A DNA stretch of 38,739 nt from Chlamydiia bacterium. GTDB lineage: Bacteria; Chlamydiota; Chlamydiia; Chlamydiales; JAAKFR01. The notes below the pieces were generated by a model that worked only from the letters and a program-made list of their open reading frames with translations, searched no databases and was not told where the DNA came from. Location of the stretch: contig JAGRNW010000003.1 of NCBI GenBank assembly GCA_020440555.1, positions 1 to 38,739 of the forward strand. The letters run 5' to 3'. A program made the position numbers and the translations under genes. Below are positions 8,904 through 30,288 of this stretch, piece after piece (within the stretch, counting starts at the first letter, position 1; every line of letters begins with the position of its first letter).

Positions 8904-9818
8904 ATGAAACCAAGAGCTTCGCTCGTTTATCTCGCACGCCCCAAAAAGTTTGAGAAACTGAATGATTTAAAAAAGAGTCTGGTTCATCTTGACCGTCATT
9001 TTAACGAAGCACACAACTACCCCATTACTATCTTTCATGAAGATTATGAACAAAAGGAGTTTGATGCTATTCGATCTACCTCTTCTTCAACTATCGAATT
9101 CATCAAGCTCCCCAATTTTCTAGAGCTTCCTTCTTATCCAGGTTTGACTCAAGAACAAGTAGAAAGATGGATCAGCGGAGAGGACTTTGGAAGGCCTAAG
9201 GCTCCATTGGGTTATCGACACATGTGTCGTTTTTATGCTTATCCAATTTTTCATCATGAAGCTCTTGCTTCTTACGATTATTACTGGCGTTTTGACGATG
9301 ATTCTTATCTACTAGGAGACGTAAAAGAAGACCCTTTTGCTTTCATGGAAAAGCATGGGTATGTTTATGGATATCGATCCGTTGAGTATGAAAATTTGAG
9401 TGCGGATGGGATTGGCCTCGACAGGCTTTGGAAGTTGACCAAGCAGTTTGCTAAAAAACACCGCTTATCACTCAAACAAGTTAAAAAAAGGGTAGCCAAT
9501 TGGAAGGGGCGCTACACAGGAATCTATTATTACAATAACTTTGAAATCAACAAGATTTCCTTTTGGCGAGAGAGTTCTTTATATACAGAGTATTTCAAAA
9601 TGTTAGATCGTTCGCTTGGTTTTTTCCAATTTCGATGGGGAGATTCTAGTGTACGGATCCTAGCAGCCAATCTATTACTCAAGAAATCTCAGATTCATCA
9701 TTTTGATGACATCCCCTATAGACATAATCATCACTATTCCCTACTAAGAAGCGAGGAAGTGCGATACGTAAAACATGAAAATCCTGATGATCTTCTCTCT
9801 GTTCTTTCGAACCTTTAG
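8904..9818 (+). CDS. GT15-family (KRE2/KTR-like) alpha-1,2-mannosyltransferase homologue
   Basis: This 304-residue protein matches the catalytic core of the fungal Golgi KRE2/KTR/MNT1 mannosyltransferases (GT15): GYRHMCRFYAYPIFHHEAL, then YDYYWRFDDDSYL (D131-D133) in place of the fungal WRVEPD block, FMEKHGYVYGYRS, then NNFEI with E214 at the place of the proposed nucleophile glutamate. LGFFQFRWGDSSVR and HFDDIPYRHNHH follow. It lacks the fungal N-terminal signal anchor and is probably cytosolic or secreted by another route. The family transfers mannose from GDP-mannose; the acceptor here is unknown. The ATG has no obvious ribosome site. GT15 is mainly eukaryotic, so acquisition from a host is a reasonable inference. 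The stop codon lies inside a small hairpin. Confidence 0.82.
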   Translation: MKPRASLVYLARPKKFEKLNDLKKSLVHLDRHFNEAHNYPITIFHEDYEQKEFDAIRSTSSSTIEFIKLPNFLELPSYPGLTQEQVERWISGEDFGRPKAPLGYRHMCRFYAYPIFHHEALASYDYYWRFDDDSYLLGDVKEDPFAFMEKHGYVYGYRSVEYENLSADGIGLDRLWKLTKQFAKKHRLSLKQVKKRVANWKGRYTGIYYYNNFEINKISFWRESSLYTEYFKMLDRSLGFFQFRWGDSSVRILAANLLLKKSQIHHFDDIPYRHNHHYSLLRSEEVRYVKHENPDDLLSVLSNL

Positions 9819-19200: not shown

Positions 19201-19321
19201 GAATTGCTGTATATAAATTTTCAAGTTTATTGCTGAGATAGACCTGAACTTGCTTTTGGAAGGGAATATGAGGTAAACTGCCTCGCATGACTTTGTTTTC
19301 ACACAAACTATTATCACCCAT
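16280..19321 (-). CDS. recC: RecBCD enzyme subunit RecC
   Basis: This protein of about 1013 residues opens with VQVYLSNKLENLY and SMQMEEWLSWRLA, comparable to the N-terminus of E. coli RecC (VYHSNRLDVL, MAQWL). The middle contains VLVLAKDIALYEPF, FSSMFPMRSIPAKVICLLGM and LLDQEEADYYPTQSDFDKYL, typical of the inactive helicase-like lobes that hold the Chi-recognition channel. It is the first gene of the recC-recB-recD operon. Start choice is uncertain: a TTG at 19333 gives four more residues, ATG 19321 is chosen here, and ATG 19288 would remove eleven residues and share the CATG tetranucleotide with the divergent flippase start. Confidence 0.9.
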   Translation of the reverse strand: MGDNSLCENKVMRGSLPHIPFQKQVQVYLSNKLENLYTAIRANLFLNSSPFSQRWVLVPSMQMEEWLSWRLASDEGIKISAGINFSFLSHGISKLTAILFEKPLTRSDTETLLILKLFEILSGKLTSTDPLFNPLKTYLNQGSQKKKEERLFGLASRLAPLFLRYPLYGEEMVKKWMKEPKNWQESIYKTLFEKKIPLSEEIASAAFKEKFPFDFSIHLFSFSHLPRPYFSLFEKIATKVPVFLYHFSPCEIFWTDSVSEKGKRWLVARYKKKEVSSASLLALLESLDEAHPLLANLGKIGKKFAYQVEEREYPTHELYDEKIKPTLLGLIQRDILLLESHSKICPNDDSIEIHSHSTLHREIENLAERLQGENPGEVLVLAKDIALYEPFIKAHFKHYKITDLPSGKKNQTVAGLFILLSLSKRKWSSLAILELFDHPLFRQKQGITDEEVSLIRKWVQETGIRWGLESGDQKCSWRDGIDKLFLLLCTWEDQVVIDITHVDLLEKLILILKHLEQDLTPFFDGTRKTLTEWRERLVHLVETYFEFLPDEIKKLEELGGDYPPLPFNVLFPLVEKELGKESVTVGRNLLGCVTFSSMFPMRSIPAKVICLLGMDHSFPRTDTFFSLDLLDQEEADYYPTQSDFDKYLFLEALLSARSRLLISYVGQNPVDGTLIPPSPLVSELQSIVADRYGQIIKERIFPPGPIGTGNPKSKRAFLQKNDHLMQLEGDYRFTLQELTWLSRSPIRHYFKETLHIHFKDKKEIKEEEEFVLTPYLLAKMRKDLLLFDQEKVKEEAKRRGMFPVGPFGDYAEFKLRKEVEGLKIPHSEKMIVGELSEIAIQPEKISPNHWLFPPLKIELSPRCVVSIVGKVGPITSEGLYISEKKGVKEAVAAWPNFLIFSALPSFGSKELIFGRDHKVCSPFFNDPFPLLRKLLEFSIRTKKHPYLFLPAWVAPLIKKDEKKLALAISQSVSFDPAMKWLSRRGWDADSMQLIEEYHGLTKWLYGDMIDAWF

Positions 19322-21041
19322 TTCTTGTCTCAATTTGACTCAATTTTTTTCGGCCTTAAATGATAATATCTATAAATTACTGCTTATCTTCATGCTCATT
19401 CATGTTAAAGGTTCAGAACATAGCAACACCATTCTGGCTTTAGCCGGCGCCATCTTTGTCATCCCTTTTTTACTTTTTGCTTCAACAGCGGGATCGCTGG
19501 CTGATCGCTATTCAAAAAAAACCCTCGTATTTGTAACCCGCATTGCCGAGCTCTGCATTGTTTTCATTGGTGTGATCGCCTTTGCCCTCAAATCAGCTTT
19601 TTTGGGTTATAGTGTCCTTTTTTTGATGGCTACACAAAGTTCAATTTTCTCACCCGCGAAATATGGCATTATTCCAGAGATCGTTAAAAAACAGAAGATT
19701 TCTCATTATAATGGAGTGATCACAGCAACGACCTATCTTGCCATTATCATTGGTACATTTTTAGGTTCATTTTTAACTGATATCACCGCTAAAAATTTTA
19801 TCTTAGCCTCCTTCTCGACAGTGATCATCGCCATTTGTGGATTCTTATTTAGTTTTGGAATCCCTAAAACAAAACCTCAGGCGAGAGAGAAAAAAGTGTC
19901 GACCAAATTTTTATCCGATATCTATAGAAGCCTCCGCAAATCTCTTGAGACACGTTACCTCTTTTTTGTTCTTATCTTTGGGGCCTATTTTCTTTTCTTG
20001 GGTTCCTACACACAACTAAATATTATTCCCTATGCCATGCAATCCCTTGGTCTCTCCGAGATCGAAGGAGGATATCTTTTTTTAATGACCGCCATAGGGA
20101 TCGGAATTGGTTCTTTTTTGGCTGGTCGATTGAGTGGGAGGGATGCAGAGTTGGGGTTTATCCCTTTGTCTGCTTTAGGCATTACTTTTTTAACACTCTT
20201 TTTGTTTATCTTCTCCTTTTCTCTTCCCTTTGTTGTTTTACTTCTCGTTTTAATGGGTTTTCTTGGCGGATTTTATATCGTTCCAGTGGATGCCTTCATC
20301 CAAACGGCCAGTCCTGATGAAGATCGTGGCGCAAATGTAGCTACTAGTAATTTTTTGAGTTTTACTGGAGTTGTTCTGTCTTCAGGGCTCCTTGCTCTCT
20401 TAGGAAATGGTTTTGGACTCACCGCCGCTCAAGGATTTTTGGTGATCGGTATGATCACATTTTTGCTTACAATCATTCTCTGCCTTGCGATGGCCGATCA
20501 AGTTCTTCGTTTAATCGTGTCTTCAGGAGCCCATTTTTTTTGGAAACTTACAATTAAAGGGAGAAAAAATCTTCGTTTACTCCCCCCCGCCCTGTTAATT
20601 GGGGAAAGAACATCTTGGCTTGATACCATTATTGTCATGGCCACCCTTCCTCGAATGATCAGATACATCGTTCCCATCTATGGTCGGTTTGTGAAGGGGC
20701 GTTCTTTTATTTACCGTCTGCTTAGGCTTATTCCCATCGACATCAAACATTTTTCCCTTCTAGGAGATGAGACCCTGGAAGAGGTAAAAAAAGAACTCAA
20801 AAAAGGACATTCTGTCTGTTTGATGTTACCCGTGGAACTTGCTACAGAAGAACTCAACGAGTGGGAAGCAAAAATTGAGAGCCTTTTGGAAAGGGCTGAT
20901 TTTTCGATCATTCCGATTCATATTATTAGAACTCCTCCAAAAGAGAACGCAACCCTCTATCAACAACTCAAGACTCTCTTTGATTTTCCCATCACAGTTG
21001 CATACGGTAACAAGCAAGAGTATACCCATTCCACTTCATGA
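19287..21041 (+). CDS. LplT-type lysophospholipid flippase fused to degenerate PlsC-like acyltransferase domain
   Basis: This 584-residue inner-membrane protein has two parts. Residues 1-415 are a major-facilitator transporter starting TQFFSALNDNIYKLLL, with GSLADRYSKKTLVF, as in LplT and the N-terminal half of Aas. Residues 420-584 resemble a lysophospholipid acyltransferase: the block GERTSWLD aligns with NHxSWLD, but the catalytic histidine of HX4D is arginine (R441; D446 kept). The FPEGT motif is replaced by LPVEL at 514-518. No AMP-binding synthetase domain follows. I infer that transport of lysophospholipid is retained and acylation in this domain is probably lost. The start overlaps the divergent recC 5' end. 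Its stop lies one base from the convergent corA stop. Confidence 0.85.
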   Translation: MTLFSHKLLSPISCLNLTQFFSALNDNIYKLLLIFMLIHVKGSEHSNTILALAGAIFVIPFLLFASTAGSLADRYSKKTLVFVTRIAELCIVFIGVIAFALKSAFLGYSVLFLMATQSSIFSPAKYGIIPEIVKKQKISHYNGVITATTYLAIIIGTFLGSFLTDITAKNFILASFSTVIIAICGFLFSFGIPKTKPQAREKKVSTKFLSDIYRSLRKSLETRYLFFVLIFGAYFLFLGSYTQLNIIPYAMQSLGLSEIEGGYLFLMTAIGIGIGSFLAGRLSGRDAELGFIPLSALGITFLTLFLFIFSFSLPFVVLLLVLMGFLGGFYIVPVDAFIQTASPDEDRGANVATSNFLSFTGVVLSSGLLALLGNGFGLTAAQGFLVIGMITFLLTIILCLAMADQVLRLIVSSGAHFFWKLTIKGRKNLRLLPPALLIGERTSWLDTIIVMATLPRMIRYIVPIYGRFVKGRSFIYRLLRLIPIDIKHFSLLGDETLEEVKKELKKGHSVCLMLPVELATEELNEWEAKIESLLERADFSIIPIHIIRTPPKENATLYQQLKTLFDFPITVAYGNKQEYTHSTS

Positions 21042-22014: not shown

Positions 22015-22153
22015 GAATGTCTGAACCGGTGATTTTGAGTAGAATTCTCAAACCTATCACAGAAAAATATACCTCACAAGAGTTCTTTCTTTTTTGTTCC
22101 TTGATTTTTACTTCTTTAACTTAAAGTGGTTGTCTGATAAAGTCACCGGGGTC

Positions 22154-23524
22154 ATGAAGAATTTCATTCGTTCCACTCTTTTTGTTCTATTGCTTTCTAG
22201 TTTTCCCCTTTTTTGTGAGGAGGAGGATGAAAGTGGTGATAAGGTTCCCAGCGTAGCTCAGGTTGTGAAAGACAACGAGCTCATTGCAGCCTCCAGCAAT
22301 CTAGGCCCCTCAGCTGTTGGGTTTCCTCCTGATGTTGACTTTGGTCCTCAAGATGAGGATTTGATCGATCCACGCGTTCTACGGGATTTTATAGAAAGTC
22401 GAGGCCTGATCCGAGCACGAAAATGTGATGGATGTTTGACAATTGCAGGGGATGTCCGTGTGCGATGGCTTGCCCAAGCTGAAACGGTGAATGGAACCCG
22501 CGTCCGAGGCTCCGGCTCTGACGTAGCTCGCAACACTTATCGCAGTGAAGTGAATCTCTTTTTTGACTATGTTGCCCCTAAGAGTTGGGTCTCGACCAAA
22601 CTCAAGTGGGCCCAATTTGATGGTCAGGATGGGGGAACGATGACCAAAGTTTCAGTAGATCGAGCTTTTTTAGGATATGATGTTTACCATAATGGAGATA
22701 CCGATTTTTACATCGAAGCGGGTCGTAGCAAACTCAATTCCATCTACGATTCCAGAGTTCAGTTTGCCGCTAACTTTGATGGTATTCATATCTACTATAC
22801 AACCCAATTTCCTGAGGTATGTGAATTTATAGTCCATGGAGGCCCTTTTCTCGTCGATAGTTTTACAAACGATTATGCTTGGGTTGCTGAATTAGAATTT
22901 TTGGGATTGGGAGGCACAGGTTTTTCAGCCAAATATAGTTATACCGACTGGTTGAAAAAGGGATCCACTCTCGATTATGGTAATCTCGCCAACTCGGGTA
23001 AAACCAATATCAAAAACAATCCTCGTTACAAATTTAGAGTGTCTCAGGTTCTTTTGGGATACCAATGTAAGCCCTCATGGCTGTGGTGTAAAACTCTCAA
23101 CCTCTTTGGGGCCACACTGATAAATCATGCAGCGGAGCCCTCTAAGACTTCCGACTGGAAAAAACTCAATCGAGCGTGGTATGTAGGTTTTGTTTTAGGA
23201 CGTTTGTGTAAAGCATGTGATTGGTCTCTTGAGTTTAACTACCAAGCTGTGGGAGCCCAGGCAGTGCCAGAGTTCGACCTTTTAGGAATTGGACACGGAA
23301 ACGCTGCAGACACTCTTTTTTCCGATGCGATTTTACAAGATTTTTTTCCCGCGCGAGCGCGTGGTTTTACCAACTATAGAGGGTATGCGGTGCAATATTT
23401 GTTTGCGATGACAGAAAGTTTATCCTTGAAAGCCCTATTTCAGAGAACAGTTCCTCTGAATAAGAATGTGGGGGGAAATTTTCGGTTTAAGTATTTTGAA
23501 CTCGCAGCCATCTACGCTTTTTAA
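22154..23524 (+). CDS. Probable outer-membrane porin
   Basis: This 456-residue protein has a signal peptide (IRSTLFVLLLSSFPLFC) followed by an acidic linker and a beta-barrel-like body. Alternating aromatic strands such as DVRVRWLAQAE, EVNLFFDYVA, TDFYIEAGRSKLNS and FDGIHIYYTT run to a final FELAAIYAF, the terminal phenylalanine of outer-membrane barrels. Paired cysteines (CDGC, CKAC, WLWC) resemble other chlamydial envelope porins. I cannot assign it to OprB/AaxA, PomS or another named family from sequence alone. The ATG at 22154 is preferred over a TTG at 22094 because it puts the signal peptide at the very N-terminus. Confidence 0.75.
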   Translation: MKNFIRSTLFVLLLSSFPLFCEEEDESGDKVPSVAQVVKDNELIAASSNLGPSAVGFPPDVDFGPQDEDLIDPRVLRDFIESRGLIRARKCDGCLTIAGDVRVRWLAQAETVNGTRVRGSGSDVARNTYRSEVNLFFDYVAPKSWVSTKLKWAQFDGQDGGTMTKVSVDRAFLGYDVYHNGDTDFYIEAGRSKLNSIYDSRVQFAANFDGIHIYYTTQFPEVCEFIVHGGPFLVDSFTNDYAWVAELEFLGLGGTGFSAKYSYTDWLKKGSTLDYGNLANSGKTNIKNNPRYKFRVSQVLLGYQCKPSWLWCKTLNLFGATLINHAAEPSKTSDWKKLNRAWYVGFVLGRLCKACDWSLEFNYQAVGAQAVPEFDLLGIGHGNAADTLFSDAILQDFFPARARGFTNYRGYAVQYLFAMTESLSLKALFQRTVPLNKNVGGNFRFKYFELAAIYAF

Positions 23525-23533
23525 CTCAAGTTA

Positions 23534-26431
23534 TTAAAGACCATATTCGTGAGGGAAAGTGTAGAGTCCCCATTGCTTATGCTCGGTTCCATTGACCCAT
23601 TTCTTCCAAATTGACATTGGCCTTCCCTCACATCCGCTTGTATCAAAACGCCACAACTCCACTTTTCCTGTTCCAGGGCCTACCATAAATCCGAATAAAT
23701 TCCTCACCCAATTCGTATCAGCAAATAGCATGGGACGGGGAGAACTAAGTCCTTCCTTTTGCATGACCTTCACAATTTTCTTATGAAAGGGAATCCGACT
23801 CGCTGTCTCATCAAGAGTTAACACCAGCAAAGCCTTAGCTATATTTCTTAATTCCACGGATGTTAATATTTTGTACCGCCCTATGCTCTCTTCCAGTTTC
23901 TCAAACTCAGAAAAAATCCTTTCATAAAAGGATTTGTCCACTTCATCTATGTTAGAAAAAATCAATTCCAATCTCTCTCTAAGCTGATATTCGGGAAAGA
24001 GGGGAAGCTGATTAAATAAGATTGCATCCAACTCTTCTGCAAAATAAGCCAAAGAAGACTGGGTCCACCTCTCATAACTAAGGGCTTCCAAGACATGTTC
24101 TCGGTAATCCTGAGGATTAAGTGAAAAAGAAAAAGGTCCTACAGCTTTTTCAAAAAAATGATGATAAGCAGGTGGAATTGCTTTTAAGATCTCTTGGTTA
24201 AGTCGATCCAACATTCGGGTATCCAAAAGGAGCCCATGATAAAAATTCACGGCAGGAGCTGACCAAGTATCTCGAATCCAAGTATAAGTGTATTCATCAG
24301 ATTGCCATCCATCAACAAAAGGTTTTCTTCCGGGCTGAATCAAAAAAGCATGAGTAGGAGAAAAAGCCAAAAGAGGTCTTGTTTCGTTATCAAGATATTT
24401 TTTTTTAATTTTTTGAGGAAGATCCTTCATTGTATCAAGCAGAAAAGCAAGGAGCTCTGTTTCATTTTCCACCCATCTACTCTCCTCATGCGGTGTCCCC
24501 GTCATTCCCCAGTAAGAACTCACAAGAGTGTTCATTGTTCCTCCCGAGGTGTAGGCCCAAGGCTTTCTTTGAACCTTATCTAAATTTTTTAAAGGTTGCT
24601 TCACAAGGGGTTCACCATAGGCTTCAGCCAATCGATAAATGGAATGTTCTAAAAAATCCTCTCTTTTAATCAGAGACACAGCTCCTGTTACCAATTCCCC
24701 GATTAGAGGCTCGATTCCTTCTGTTTCTGGGAGATGGGAAAGTTCTCCTTCGGTTGCGATAAAAAAAGCACTGAGAGCCTCGACATATTCAGCCGCATTG
24801 TTAATCATTGTCCAAGCAGAAGTATTGCTTCGTCCATGCTTATATAAAAGACGAAAGCCAGCAGGACTATCATCGTAAAGGCCCGTTTCAACATCCAGCA
24901 TTGAAGCATCATACACCTCTTGAAAAAACTCTCTGAATTTATTTTGGTAAAACGCTCCCAAAAAAGGAGCCAGGGATCCCACGCGTCGACCTCTATCATA
25001 AGCTTCGTCCCGAAAATTTAAAACTCGATTGAGTTCGTGCATCCTCATACGGTATTCAGCGTGGATCCACTGAGCTTCTCGATCATCTTTGGCATTTTTT
25101 AAACGCCCTTCCAATGTTTTTACTTGGGCAAAAAGATGGTCATAGTTCGATTGATTCTCTTCGATCTCATGATTGGCCTGATCCACTTGCCGCTTGAGTA
25201 TCTCATGGATCAAACTCCCAATGCCCAAAACAGAATCGGTATTGAGCCCCAAACTTGCATGCAAATTCCATCTGGCAAAATCAGCCTTTGTTTCGGCAAA
25301 TGAAGCCACAGTGAATTCCCAGCTCTTGAGCAAAGCGTTATCAGTGATCGCTTTAAAACTTTCTTTTGCTTTTCCAAGTGCCATGAAATAGGCTGAACAT
25401 GACTCCCTTTTGTTCGAGCGAGGACGTTTGTGCAAAATTGTCATAGGGGACAAGAAAAAATCCTTCGGACGATGAGCATATTGCTCAATATCTTTATCAG
25501 TGATTCCATAGTGAGTTTTTAAAATCGAATCGATTACTTTCTCGGCCGTCAGAAGGGCAAACGGTTCCTCTTGTTGCGCACGGAGAGGAGTTTTGGCAAG
25601 GTAATCATAGAGTTCATGCATTTTCTCTTCCTCTGTGATCGATGAGCTGATGAGCCCAGCACCACTTAAAGCCGCGATCAACCCAGGCGCCTTGGCAAGC
25701 CTCTTCCACGGCTTTGGTCCAAGAGTCGCAAGATAAAAAGGACGTCGAAGATCCCCCAAGCCCCAACTTTGACTTAAAGGAACCACATGTTCAATTCCAT
25801 AAAAAGTACGCGATAACCTCCCTGTGGCAATCAGCTCTCCCATATCAAGAAAAAATTGCTCAGGCAAACACTGCTGGATTAAGATGGCCGGGGCTGTGGC
25901 AAAGCAGGAACCCACATTTTGTCTAAGAGAAGTGAAAAGAGCAGCAAGAGCAGCCCTTCGTGTATCCACGTCCGTGAGCAACACTCCTGGTGAAAGTCCT
26001 AAAGTCTCCCGTATCAAAGTCTCAACTAAAGGATTGTTCATGGGTTTTGAAATTTGCTTGAGACGGATGCGTATCAATTTATTTTCAGCAAAAGCATTGA
26101 GCATATTAAGAAGATGCTGTTTTCTCTCATCATCGTGAAAAGCATGGGTCCCAAGGGAATAGAGGCGGTCTTTCACCGTTTCTTTGGCGATCTTGATTTT
26201 TTTATCACTTATTTCTCCGTTGTCATCAACAAGAAATTGGGCGAGGATCTGAGCCTCTCTTCTATTTCTCCAAGACCAACTATCTTGAATATAGGTAATA
26301 TCAAGATCATGACTTATCTTCGCATGTTCTTTCGAATAGAGCTCCTCTAATCCAACAGGAACTTTGATTTCATCATTCAAAGTTTTGACAAATGTCTCTT
26401 CCAAAAAAAGGGGGTCATCTAACGCTCTCAA
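23534..26431 (-). CDS. Large conserved chlamydial protein with papain-like signatures (CT590-type by context)
   Basis: This is a 965-residue protein with no signal peptide or membrane segment. By position (behind rsbU-type genes, in the neighbourhood of eno) it matches what I recall of C. trachomatis CT590, a conserved hypothetical protein. Sequence features suggest a papain-like fold. RQNVGSCFATAPAIL (Q171, C176) resembles the papain QGSCGSCWAF block, and LPEQFFLD resembles LSEQxLVD. Far downstream, SPTHAFLI (H694) and YTWIRDTWS (D721) resemble the HAVxxVGY and YWIxKNSWG blocks, with Asp replacing Asn. About 500 residues lie between the Cys and His blocks. A helical, charged segment near 430-480 may be a coiled coil. 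The start overlaps the stop of the preceding phosphatase by 4 bases (ATGA), so the two are translationally coupled. Confidence 0.8.
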   Translation of the reverse strand: MRALDDPLFLEETFVKTLNDEIKVPVGLEELYSKEHAKISHDLDITYIQDSWSWRNRREAQILAQFLVDDNGEISDKKIKIAKETVKDRLYSLGTHAFHDDERKQHLLNMLNAFAENKLIRIRLKQISKPMNNPLVETLIRETLGLSPGVLLTDVDTRRAALAALFTSLRQNVGSCFATAPAILIQQCLPEQFFLDMGELIATGRLSRTFYGIEHVVPLSQSWGLGDLRRPFYLATLGPKPWKRLAKAPGLIAALSGAGLISSSITEEEKMHELYDYLAKTPLRAQQEEPFALLTAEKVIDSILKTHYGITDKDIEQYAHRPKDFFLSPMTILHKRPRSNKRESCSAYFMALGKAKESFKAITDNALLKSWEFTVASFAETKADFARWNLHASLGLNTDSVLGIGSLIHEILKRQVDQANHEIEENQSNYDHLFAQVKTLEGRLKNAKDDREAQWIHAEYRMRMHELNRVLNFRDEAYDRGRRVGSLAPFLGAFYQNKFREFFQEVYDASMLDVETGLYDDSPAGFRLLYKHGRSNTSAWTMINNAAEYVEALSAFFIATEGELSHLPETEGIEPLIGELVTGAVSLIKREDFLEHSIYRLAEAYGEPLVKQPLKNLDKVQRKPWAYTSGGTMNTLVSSYWGMTGTPHEESRWVENETELLAFLLDTMKDLPQKIKKKYLDNETRPLLAFSPTHAFLIQPGRKPFVDGWQSDEYTYTWIRDTWSAPAVNFYHGLLLDTRMLDRLNQEILKAIPPAYHHFFEKAVGPFSFSLNPQDYREHVLEALSYERWTQSSLAYFAEELDAILFNQLPLFPEYQLRERLELIFSNIDEVDKSFYERIFSEFEKLEESIGRYKILTSVELRNIAKALLVLTLDETASRIPFHKKIVKVMQKEGLSSPRPMLFADTNWVRNLFGFMVGPGTGKVELWRFDTSGCEGRPMSIWKKWVNGTEHKQWGLYTFPHEYGL

Positions 26432-28356
26432 GGCTCTTCCTCTATTCTCATTGCCAGAATTGTGATATCATCCATTTGCGGAGCTCCTTTCTTGAAAGCT
26501 CTCACCTCATTGGTGAGTCCTGTCACGACCTCTTTGGCTGTTTTCCATGCCCTTTGTTGAAGAAGACTCTGCAAATAAGAAAACGTGAATTTCTGATTTT
26601 TACGATTAACCGCATCAGTTAATCCGTCCGTATAGAAAAGAACAACATCGCCAGGATACAGATCAACCCGTTCTGATTCAAGTTTAGATAGTTCTTTAAG
26701 TCCCATCGCCATCCCTGTGTGAGAAAGGGTGATCAAATGTCCATTTGCCCGTCTTACGATCCCGGGGACATGACCACAAGAATAATAATCAAACCAATGA
26801 GTGTCTGGATGATAGATCCCCATTAAAACGGTCACAAACATCCCTGTATCCCCAGTATCATTAAGAAAAAGATTGTTGGATTTCTCCATCAATTTCGCTA
26901 CATCCTCGTATCGAGTTGCGTAAGCTCTCAAAATACTTCTCAATCCAAGAGCGTAAATGCAAGAAGAGACCCCTTTTCCTGCAGCATCGGCAATCGTAAG
27001 GATGAGTTCCTCCTTGGACTGAGAATGAAAGCTGGGACGAGAAAACACATCATAGAAATCTCCACTCACCTCTTGGGCAGGAATGTAAGCTTCAGCAATC
27101 TCGACTCCTTTAATCGAAGTGATCTTTTCAGGAAAAAGATTTCTCTGAACTTCCTGTCCAATCGCGAGCTCCTTGCGATAGGTTTCTTTCATCACGCGCT
27201 CGTCTCCCGCGTCCTTAGTATTTTTAAGAAGAGTTTCCAAGGTTTGATTAAAAATATTTCCTAGAATATTGATTTCAAAACCGAGAGGCTCTGGTTTGAA
27301 ACGGACTTCATAATCCCCTCCACCGACACGTCCCATCAAATGAGAAAGCTGTCTAAGCGGCCGACTCATCCACAAGGTGATCCAGTAAGTGATCCCTCCT
27401 CCAGCAATCAAGATAAAACCATAGATGGAATAGATGATCACAAAATGACGAATTGCCTCTCCAAAAATCAATGATTTGGGGGAATAGGCGACCAGTGAGA
27501 TTCCTGCCCTAGGACTAGCAGCACGGTACCCAATTTGAACCTGACCATCAAAGAGAAACTGAAAGTAGGAAGAGTCCTCATCTTTGATAATCGGAATGAT
27601 TTGACTTGCTAAAGGATAATCCCCTAATTGACCCGAATTGATGATCTCTTCTCGCCTTACGTAAGAGATAGGTTTAAAAATCTGCCTTTCAAATCGAGGA
27701 TCGGTGGCAGCAAAAACAATCCCTTCTGAATCGACAAGAGCAAATTGAATCTCTCTCTTTTCTCCCCCTTTTTCAAGCATTGGTTTGATCCGTTCCTCAA
27801 TATTGGATCCCACCATGACAATCCCGAGGGGGGTTTTGTTCTGAGAATAAATCGCTCGCGCAACAAACAAGGTAGGGACAAGTTTTTTTTCCTTATCCGA
27901 ATAGATGTAACGAAAAAAATCCCCCTGTCCCCAAAGGATGACATCTTTTAGTTGCACATAACTCAAAAATTCTCTTCCGATCTCCTCTTGATGAGTTGAT
28001 GCAAGCACATGGTAATTGACATCAGAACTCACATCAAGAATATAAATTGTATATTCAAGATTCAAAACATCAAGACCTAAAAGCTGCTGCTGTACCGTTT
28101 TCAAGTCCTTATCATTTAAAGCTTTTTCTATAGCCAAAAGATAAGAAAGTTCATCAAGCAAAACAAATTTGACCGGTTCGAGTTCCGTGATTGAATACGC
28201 GCGATAATTGGCCAATTCTTGCAGTTCTTCCTTTGCATCTTCAATCGAAACTTCGTAAGTATGCTGAAAAAATAAAAAAGAATCGATGAGTAGGGGAAGC
28301 GCCAAAATGATAAAACTCATCGCAAGAACCCGCATCGGAAAAGATTTTCTTAACAT
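26428..28356 (-). CDS. rsbU: RsbU-like membrane PP2C phosphatase (sensor-HAMP-SpoIIE), copy 1
   Basis: This 642-residue protein has one membrane segment at about 8-30, a periplasmic sensor region of about 270 residues, a second membrane segment near 304-325, a HAMP domain to about 380 and a PP2C/SpoIIE phosphatase to the end. Metal-binding blocks are intact: VSGDFYDVF, TIADAAGKGVSSC, VLFYTDGLTDAV and MDDITILAM. RsbU proteins dephosphorylate an anti-anti-sigma factor (RsbV type) and so release sigma factor; the Chlamydia homologue has a periplasmic ligand-sensing domain. It abuts the paralogue at 28357 with no gap (stop codon directly followed by ATG) and overlaps the 965-residue gene by 4 bases. 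Confidence 0.93.
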   Translation of the reverse strand: MLRKSFPMRVLAMSFIILALPLLIDSFLFFQHTYEVSIEDAKEELQELANYRAYSITELEPVKFVLLDELSYLLAIEKALNDKDLKTVQQQLLGLDVLNLEYTIYILDVSSDVNYHVLASTHQEEIGREFLSYVQLKDVILWGQGDFFRYIYSDKEKKLVPTLFVARAIYSQNKTPLGIVMVGSNIEERIKPMLEKGGEKREIQFALVDSEGIVFAATDPRFERQIFKPISYVRREEIINSGQLGDYPLASQIIPIIKDEDSSYFQFLFDGQVQIGYRAASPRAGISLVAYSPKSLIFGEAIRHFVIIYSIYGFILIAGGGITYWITLWMSRPLRQLSHLMGRVGGGDYEVRFKPEPLGFEINILGNIFNQTLETLLKNTKDAGDERVMKETYRKELAIGQEVQRNLFPEKITSIKGVEIAEAYIPAQEVSGDFYDVFSRPSFHSQSKEELILTIADAAGKGVSSCIYALGLRSILRAYATRYEDVAKLMEKSNNLFLNDTGDTGMFVTVLMGIYHPDTHWFDYYSCGHVPGIVRRANGHLITLSHTGMAMGLKELSKLESERVDLYPGDVVLFYTDGLTDAVNRKNQKFTFSYLQSLLQQRAWKTAKEVVTGLTNEVRAFKKGAPQMDDITILAMRIEEEP

Positions 28357-30288
28357 CTAAAGCACCTTTATCACCAGCAACGTGATATCATCATGCTGAG
28401 GGGCCCCTCCCGCAAATGCGTGCACATGCGCAACAATACGACGGGCAATCACGGAGGCCGTGTGATCTCCTTCTTCTTTTAAAATCTCCCGCAGCCGCTC
28501 CTCAGAAAATTGAACAAACTGTTGATTATGAGCCTCAGTGATGCCATCCGTATAGAAGAGAACAACATCTCCACCTTCTAGCGTCACTGTATCTGAAATT
28601 GCCGAGTCTAAAAATTCAACCCCCATCGCCATATTCTGATTTTTCATATCCTGAATTTGGCCATTTTTTCTTCGTATAATCCCTGGATTATGCCCAAAAG
28701 AAGAGTAACTTAATGTTTTTGTTTTGAGATCGAAGATTCCAACGAGCATGGTCACAAACATCCCTGAATCACTGGTGTCTTTGCAAAAAAGATTATTCGT
28801 TGCAAGCATCACATCTTCCACTTTCTCATACTCATGATAAAACGCTCTTAGCAAACTTCTGACACCGACAGAGTAAAAACACGCCTGAACTCCCTTTCCA
28901 GAAGCATCGGCAATGGTAAAATATATTTTACTTTTTTCTTTTTCATAATGAACACCATAAAAATCTCCTCCCACGTCTTTTGCAGGGATATAAATCTCCC
29001 CTATGTCAATATCAAGTCCAGGAAACTCATGAAACAACTGAGGAAGAAGATTTCTTTGAACCTCCTGACCAATGAGGAGTTCTTTGGAGAGAGTTTCTTT
29101 TTTGATCCGCTCTTTTTCGGCAACCGCTCGTTCGGCGAGAAGAGCATCCACCATGTCATTGAAAATATCTCCAAGGAGGTTAATTTCAAACCCCCATTGA
29201 TCATACCTATAGCGAGAAGAAAGATTCCCCCTTTGGATCTCGATCATTGTCGAAGAGAGTTTTTTAAGTGGCCGTGCCATTAACCGCGTCATCATATAGG
29301 CGATCAATCCCCCTATAATGAGAATAGCTGCATAACTTCCATAAATGGCAACAAATTCGTGAAGAGGAGCAGCATAAATGGCATTTTTCGCCGAGTAAAC
29401 AAGAAGAGAGTAATCTGTGGTAGCTATTTTGTGTATATAACCAATCTGTCGCTTCCTATTCCAAGTAAATTCAAAGAAAGGGTACCCAATTTTATAAGAG
29501 ACTTTTAAATTCGATTTGGGAAGAAGGAACTCAGCAAAAGGAGCTTCTGAAATCAACCGATCCCGATGAGTTTCAGACATGGGCTCAAAATATTGATATT
29601 GCAAGGAGGGGTCGCTAGAAGCAAAGATCACAGTGTCTGGAAGAAGAAAAGCAAAATTGACCGCATACAGATCCGTATCTGGTTGCAAAAATTTGTCAAG
29701 TTTTTGAGTAATTTCTTGAGAAACAATGATCACTCCAAGGGGTTTTGATTCTTTTTCTTTTGAATACACCACCCTCCCTACAATAAGAACGGGAACGGGT
29801 TGGGGGGTTCGATACTCGTAAGAAATATAGGTGAAATACCCCCGCTGGCGCGCTTCGGGGGAAAAAATATTCGAAAGCATGATAAGATTTGTGTCATTGC
29901 GCCCAATCAAAAAGGGATTAGAGGAATCGACAACAATAAACTCTTTGTTAGATGTAATCTTGATGAAAGAAATTCCCGCAAAACCTCCTTTATTTTTCAT
30001 TTCTAATAATTTCTCTTGAGTCTTAGGATCAGATTGTTGGGGAAAAGCTTCTCTTAAATTAAAGGCATATTCAATTAGAACTAATAGGGGGCGTTTGATG
30101 GGTTGAATTTGGGAAAGAGGCATCTCTCTGGTTTTAGCCAGCTCAACGAGACGCCCTTTCGCATCTGAAATAGCATTCCGGTAACTTTTTTGAACAATGA
30201 CAAAGGAGTCCACTAAAAGGGGAAGAGCGAGTAATATAAAGCTAATAGCAAGCAAACGAAAAGCAAGTGATTTGCGAAATGGAATCAT
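28357..30288 (-). CDS. RsbU-like membrane PP2C phosphatase, copy 2 (tandem paralogue)
   Basis: This 643-residue protein has the same architecture as its neighbour: membrane segment at about 10-31, periplasmic sensor, membrane segment near 310-332, HAMP and SpoIIE/PP2C. The two N-termini are clearly related (AISFILLALPLLVDSF here, AMSFIILALPLLIDSF in copy 1), so this is a tandem duplication. Phosphatase blocks are GGDFYGVHY, TIADASGKGVQACF, VLFYTDGITEAH and HDDITLLVI. The second aspartate of the usual GDFYD block is glycine here. The periplasmic sequences have diverged strongly, implying different ligands. It is the first gene of the three-gene operon, with its start 45 bases from the divergent SpoU gene. 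From memory, C. trachomatis has CT589 at the equivalent place. Confidence 0.92.
   Translation of the reverse strand: MIPFRKSLAFRLLAISFILLALPLLVDSFVIVQKSYRNAISDAKGRLVELAKTREMPLSQIQPIKRPLLVLIEYAFNLREAFPQQSDPKTQEKLLEMKNKGGFAGISFIKITSNKEFIVVDSSNPFLIGRNDTNLIMLSNIFSPEARQRGYFTYISYEYRTPQPVPVLIVGRVVYSKEKESKPLGVIIVSQEITQKLDKFLQPDTDLYAVNFAFLLPDTVIFASSDPSLQYQYFEPMSETHRDRLISEAPFAEFLLPKSNLKVSYKIGYPFFEFTWNRKRQIGYIHKIATTDYSLLVYSAKNAIYAAPLHEFVAIYGSYAAILIIGGLIAYMMTRLMARPLKKLSSTMIEIQRGNLSSRYRYDQWGFEINLLGDIFNDMVDALLAERAVAEKERIKKETLSKELLIGQEVQRNLLPQLFHEFPGLDIDIGEIYIPAKDVGGDFYGVHYEKEKSKIYFTIADASGKGVQACFYSVGVRSLLRAFYHEYEKVEDVMLATNNLFCKDTSDSGMFVTMLVGIFDLKTKTLSYSSFGHNPGIIRRKNGQIQDMKNQNMAMGVEFLDSAISDTVTLEGGDVVLFYTDGITEAHNQQFVQFSEERLREILKEEGDHTASVIARRIVAHVHAFAGGAPQHDDITLLVIKVL

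What the first reader, a model, noticed from the sequence alone, without database searches (positions are those of the whole stretch)
23534..26431. Possible papain-fold cysteine peptidase in a large chlamydial protein
Seen: RQNVGSCFATA with Q171 and C176, followed by LPEQFFLD; then, about 500 residues later, SPTHAFLI (H694) and YTWIRDTWS (D721). Known: papain-family enzymes have Q...GSCWAF, LSEQ-LVD, HAV--VGY and YWI-KNSWG in that order, and YopT-type effectors use a Cys-His-Asp triad. Inference: this protein keeps the same four blocks in the same order with Asp replacing Asn, so it may be a divergent clan CA peptidase or pseudo-peptidase with a large insertion. I know of no such description of this family.
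Basis: partly seen in the sequence, partly recalled or inferred. Interest (0 to 1): 0.72.

Follow-up and report, generated by a model that had tools for sequence, protein, structure and literature searches.

The report
Chlamydia-wide papain-like cysteine enzyme (CT590)

Summary
The 965-aa protein (minus strand, 23534-26431) matches C. trachomatis CT590, a Chlamydiales signature protein with no Pfam, NCBIfam or PDB relative. The Asp (D721) does not. In 129 chlamydial orthologues and 26 far more distant paralogues (15-22% identity), conservation points to Q171, C176, H694 and N907-W908 as one site. Of 123 orthologues covering all five positions, 121 keep all five. The other two, on different branches, lost all five and kept D721. 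D721 is absent from 10 orthologues with an intact site and present in 2 of 26 paralogues. The five residues are kept in 24-25 of 26 paralogues, and the one paralogue without the Gln lost the other four too. Gln...Cys...His...Asn-(x)-Trp is the papain-clan order. This is best read as an undescribed, probably cytosolic papain-like cysteine hydrolase family of Chlamydiota. Both AlphaFold models were too poor (pLDDT 48 and 55) to test the geometry, and profile comparison with C1 peptidases found nothing significant. Fold and activity are therefore inferred. Published CT590 insertion mutants grow poorly, and CT590 was not secreted in two assays.

The parts
23534..26431 (-). CT590 orthologue, 965 aa, predicted papain-like cysteine hydrolase; TTG start overlaps the stop of the upstream gene
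   Evidence: no TM segment or signal peptide by hydropathy
25898..25924 (-). Cys block RQNVGSCFA (residues 170-178): Q171 predicted oxyanion Gln, C176 predicted nucleophile
   Evidence: Q171 and C176 each in 123 of 125 covering orthologues and 25 of 26 paralogues
24533..24562 (-). PWAYTSGGTM (residues 624-633), predicted substrate-pocket loop; G630 and G631 lost in both degenerate orthologues
   Evidence: G630 in 24 of 26 paralogues
24344..24361 (-). His block SPTHAF (residues 691-696): H694 predicted catalytic base
   Evidence: H694 in 123 of 125 covering orthologues and 25 of 26 paralogues
24269..24286 (-).
   Evidence: absent in 10 orthologues with intact site, present in both degenerate ones, 2 of 26 paralogues
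23708..23725 (-). FADTNW (residues 903-908): N907 predicted third catalytic residue, W908 predicted shielding Trp, D905 accessory
   Evidence: N907 and W908 each in 24 of 26 paralogues, co-lost with Q, C, H in three degenerate proteins; D905 in 18 of 26
26428..28356 (-). upstream HAMP-SpoIIE/PP2C protein, CT589 position
   Evidence: synteny with CT588-CT589-CT590 (PMC4552016)
28357..30288 (-). HAMP-SpoIIE/PP2C protein, RsbU (CT588) position

Best explanation
The protein is a large, probably cytosolic, papain-like cysteine hydrolase (most likely a peptidase). Q171 would form the oxyanion hole, C176 be the nucleophile, H694 the base, N907 orient the histidine and W908 cover that pair, as in papain's Gln/Cys/His/Asn with the following Trp. 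The SGG loop (629-631), D508 and the AGFR segment probably line the pocket. The coiled-coil hairpin and other inserts are accessory. D721 is structural in most lineages, not catalytic. Shown here: residue conservation, joint loss, dispensability of inserts. Inferred: fold, chemistry, peptidase activity. The substrate is unknown, presumably a bacterial protein because CT590 was not found secreted.
For: 73 homologues: Q171, C176, H694, N907, W908 in 72 each. Census of 129 orthologues: of 123 covering all five positions, 121 intact; the other two (L041, L143) lost all five and sit on separate branches. 26 paralogues at 14.6-22.4% identity: Q 25, C 25, H 25, N 24, W 24, G174 26; D721 2; the paralogue lacking Gln (L136) also lacks C, H, N, W. 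In a 20-sequence superfamily alignment Q, C, H, N, W are among only 12 invariant columns. Most paralogues show QGxxG[SD]CF with Gln-Cys spacing 6. A1 and A4 are homologous over 727 columns. Natural variant L063 brings His to Asn within 43 residues, others to about 106.
Against: No significant sequence or profile similarity to a known papain-clan family. Joint loss in L143 is weak on its own because that protein lost 28 of 42 conserved columns (hypergeometric p 0.12; L041 p 0.0035). No activity data exist in the papers read.
Confidence: 0.75

Rival explanations
1. Papain-like fold and site used for other acyl chemistry (transglutaminase, deamidase, amidase or acyltransferase) on a protein or small molecule.
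For: The same Cys-His-Asn/Asp site serves several chemistries in papain-like folds (general knowledge); the protein appears cytosolic and not secreted (PMC13251465).
Against: A Gln before the Cys with His and Asn-Trp after it is the peptidase arrangement (C1, C2); nothing here separates chemistries directly.
Confidence: 0.15
2. One reading: Cys-His-Asp with D721 as third residue, as in YopT-type enzymes.
For: D721 is in 115 of 121 orthologues with a residue there and follows H694 by 27 residues, near papain-like spacing.
Against: Lost in 10 orthologues with an otherwise intact site, retained in both degenerate orthologues, 2 of 26 in paralogues.
Confidence: 0.05
3. Not an enzyme: the conserved residues form a metal site or structural core and the papain resemblance is convergent.
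For: Only one fully conserved Cys and one fully conserved His; no fold evidence; degenerate versions persist as full-length ORFs.
Against: Gln-6-Cys with G[SD]C, joint loss of Gln, Cys, His, Asn and Trp in three proteins, and their preservation at 15-22% identity fit an active site better than a core.
Confidence: 0.1

Closest known systems
Chlamydia trachomatis CT590 / CTL0853 (conserved hypothetical)
   Same: Orthologous family: Chlamydiales-only, 954 aa, next to rsbU (CT588) and CT589 (PMC1403754, PMC4552016)
   Different: No function, domain or active site has been described in the papers found; this report proposes the site
Papain family C1A (and C1B, bleomycin hydrolase / PepC)
   Same: Ordered Gln, Cys, Gly-Gly, His, Asn-(x)-Trp; C1B also cytosolic with a large insert between Cys and His
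   Different: No profile similarity (hhalign probability 0.3% or less, versus 100% for C1A against C1B); Asn-Trp instead of Asn-Ser-Trp-Gly; Asn 43-213 residues after His; about 600-1000 aa
Calpain family C2
   Same: From memory: QGxLGDCW, HA(Y/F), N-P-W; paralogues read QGPVGDCF, HAF, TNW / DPNW
   Different: No Peptidase_C2 hit in the family or in 180 Chlamydiota genomes (the control search rang nowhere, so absence is not proven); no calpain accessory domains seen
YopT-type C58 peptidases
   Different: Asn rather than Asp is the conserved third position; CT590 was not secreted in published assays; not compared directly, no effector sequence was fetched

Membership tests
Clan CA / papain-like cysteine peptidase (superfamily level) | Ordered Gln (oxyanion), Cys, His, Asn/Asp | tested here: met
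   Q171, C176, H694, N907 conserved in orthologues and paralogues
Clan CA / papain-like cysteine peptidase (superfamily level) | Papain fold with the residues in one site | tested here: inconclusive
   AlphaFold pLDDT 48 and 55, active-site regions below 50; coevolution mostly noise
Clan CA / papain-like cysteine peptidase (superfamily level) | Thiol-dependent hydrolysis | not testable with these tools
   needs recombinant protein
Peptidase family C1 (C1A/C1B) | Sequence or profile similarity to PF00112 / PF03051 | tested here: not met
   No Pfam hit; hhalign probability 0.3% or less
Peptidase family C1 (C1A/C1B) | NSWG motif at the Asn | tested here: not met
   DTNW, DSNW, FTNW or DPNW instead
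Peptidase family C2 (calpain) | Match to PF00648 | tested here: not met
   No hit in family members
   Dissociates from the site
CT590 orthologue group | Full-length similarity across Chlamydiota, synteny with rsbU/CT589 | tested here: met
   188 of 234 genomes; PP2C genes upstream in the window's family and Chlamydiaceae

The most novel reading that the evidence does not exclude
A Chlamydiota-specific superfamily of giant papain-like cysteine hydrolases: one near-ubiquitous member probably acting inside the bacterium and affecting growth or development, encoded with the Rsb sigma-66 switch in two families, plus many lineage-specific paralogues, some with apparent signal peptides, and repeated independent decay into pseudoenzymes.
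Probability: 0.4. Interest if true: 0.75.

Novelty: new variant of a known kind. Interest (0 to 1): 0.6.

Why it matters
CT590 is one of the larger core proteins of unknown function in chlamydiae, and its insertion mutant makes almost 100-fold fewer progeny at 24 h (PMC6686042). A named nucleophile (C176) and partners turn it into a testable enzyme and a possible internal drug target, and give a first lead on a peptidase encoded beside the RsbU module. The correction of the third residue prevents a misleading mutagenesis test.

Tried and rejected
Homologues from the genome search were not handed to the structure tool, because its stated rule names other sources. Profile searches of PDB with A1, A4 and A5: only coiled-coil or repeat noise. 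Viral contigs, plasmids and phages: no relatives. PHROGs: nothing useful. D721 as third residue: rejected. LPEQ block: rejected as not conserved.

Full report
What is there. The finding's coordinates hold one long minus-strand ORF of 965 aa with a TTG start at 26431 that overlaps the stop of the upstream gene (TTGA), with AGGA a few bases before it. It has no Pfam match, no NCBIfam match and no PDB sequence relative. It has no signal peptide or transmembrane stretch by hydropathy. The two genes upstream on the same strand are HAMP-SpoIIE/PP2C proteins, the arrangement CT588 (RsbU), CT589, CT590 of C. trachomatis (PMC4552016). CT590 is a 954-aa Chlamydiales signature protein of unknown function (PMC1403754). 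Orthology to CT590 rests on the match to the Chlamydia-like genomes (genomes here are unnamed), the length and the synteny; the CT590 sequence itself was not fetched by name. Homologues occur in 188 of 234 Chlamydiota genomes, 192 with a profile. No relatives were found in viral contigs, plasmids or phage records.

Conservation. In 73 homologues Q171, C176, H694, D905, N907 and W908 are each kept in 72 and D721 in 71; C176 is the only conserved cysteine. All exceptions at Q, C, H, D905, N907 and W908 are one protein, L041 (genome G028, in the same family as the Chlamydia-like genomes), which still has D721. Short natural homologues (about 610-720 aa) show that the insert after E214 and the helical insert between YTWIRD and FADTNW are dispensable; in L063 His and Asn are 43 residues apart.

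Widened census. With 129 orthologues, 123 cover all five positions Q, C, H, N, W: 121 keep all five, and L041 and L143 lost all five while keeping D721. Ten of the 121 lack D721 by alignment; an eleventh, L059, has a D in that column but no YTWIRD motif. A FastTree analysis places L041 at the base of the Chlamydiaceae clade and L143 elsewhere, so the losses look independent. In L041 the five fall among 15 lost of 42 columns at 97% or more (hypergeometric p 0.0035); in L143, which lost 28 of 42, the test is not significant (p 0.12). Positions lost in both are R170, Q171, G174, C176, F177, D508, G525, G630, G631, H694, N907, W908, which I take as the likely active-site neighbourhood (inference).

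Paralogues. Profile searches uncovered distant paralogues in environmental chlamydiae. The first six form a profile homologous to the orthologues over 727 columns at 100% probability. Across 26 paralogues with 14.6-22.4% identity to the window protein, the best-kept columns include G174 (26), Q171, C176, H694 (25 each), N907, W908 and G630 (24 each); D905 is kept in 18 and D721 in 2. The one paralogue without the Gln, L136, also lacks Cys, His, Asn and Trp at those positions. In a mixed 20-sequence alignment only 12 columns are invariant, and they include Q, C, H, N and W. Most paralogues carry QGxxG[SD]CF with six positions from Gln to Cys, the spacing I recall for papain and calpain; orthologues have five. 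Several paralogues appear to carry signal peptides.

Reading. Gln, Cys, then His, then Asn with a nearby Trp, in that order, with a conserved Gly-Gly segment between Cys and His, is the layout of papain-like (clan CA) peptidases (general knowledge; papain and calpain motifs recalled from memory, not tested as alignments). The function of D721, YTWIRD and D905 is not settled; D905 is absent in some paralogues with an intact site. I therefore assign the site to Q171, C176, H694 and N907 with W908.

What is not shown. The fold is untested: with the four sequences allowed for structure prediction the models had pLDDT 47.9 and 54.7 with the active-site regions below 50. Profile comparison with chlamydial C1A and C1B peptidases gave 0.3% probability or less, against 100% for C1A versus C1B; the best local match of the superfamily profile to C1A falls on the Cys block but is not significant (P 0.24). 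The protein is therefore not filed as a member of family C1 or C2, only as working like a papain-type enzyme.

Biology from papers. Transposon insertions in ct590 are viable, and the mutant studied gave almost two logs fewer progeny at 24 h and smaller inclusions at 42 h (PMC6686042). A first secretion test was uninformative because of low expression (PMC3931295). A later study scored CT590 as not secreted in two assays (PMC13251465). An internal role is therefore more likely than an effector role. In most non-Chlamydiaceae the neighbour on the divergent side looks like threonyl-tRNA synthetase, followed by a ParA-like gene (identified by reading the sequences). Linkage with the two PP2C genes was seen only in the window's family and Chlamydiaceae, so a link to the Rsb switch is only a lead.

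Noticed in passing
window 8904-9818 (+): 304-aa ORF matches Glyco_transf_15 (E 1.7e-44), named glycolipid 2-alpha-mannosyltransferase, a family I know mainly from fungi; possible gene acquired from a eukaryote.
   Followed up: no
window 26428-28356 and 28357-30288 (-): Both tandem HAMP-SpoIIE proteins score as full PP2C domains; the CT589-position protein appears by eye to keep Asp residues of the kind that C. trachomatis CT589 is reported to have lost (PMC4552016).
   Followed up: partly
window 22094-23524 (+): Porin-like protein (weak Porin_5) converging on the gene; relatives lie beside the CT590 orthologue in many Chlamydiota loci, often in the same orientation instead.
   Followed up: partly
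window 19287-21041 (+): MFS transporter fused to an acyltransferase, matching the first half of acyl-[ACP]-phospholipid O-acyltransferase fusions.
   Followed up: no
L041 3226-6096 and L143 2778-5528: Full-length CT590 orthologues with the whole predicted active site lost, in two separate lineages: apparent pseudoenzymes.
   Followed up: yes
L197-L203: Very large ORFs (about 850-1626 aa) carrying a distant version of the domain; no confident Pfam domain in those scanned; function unknown.
   Followed up: partly
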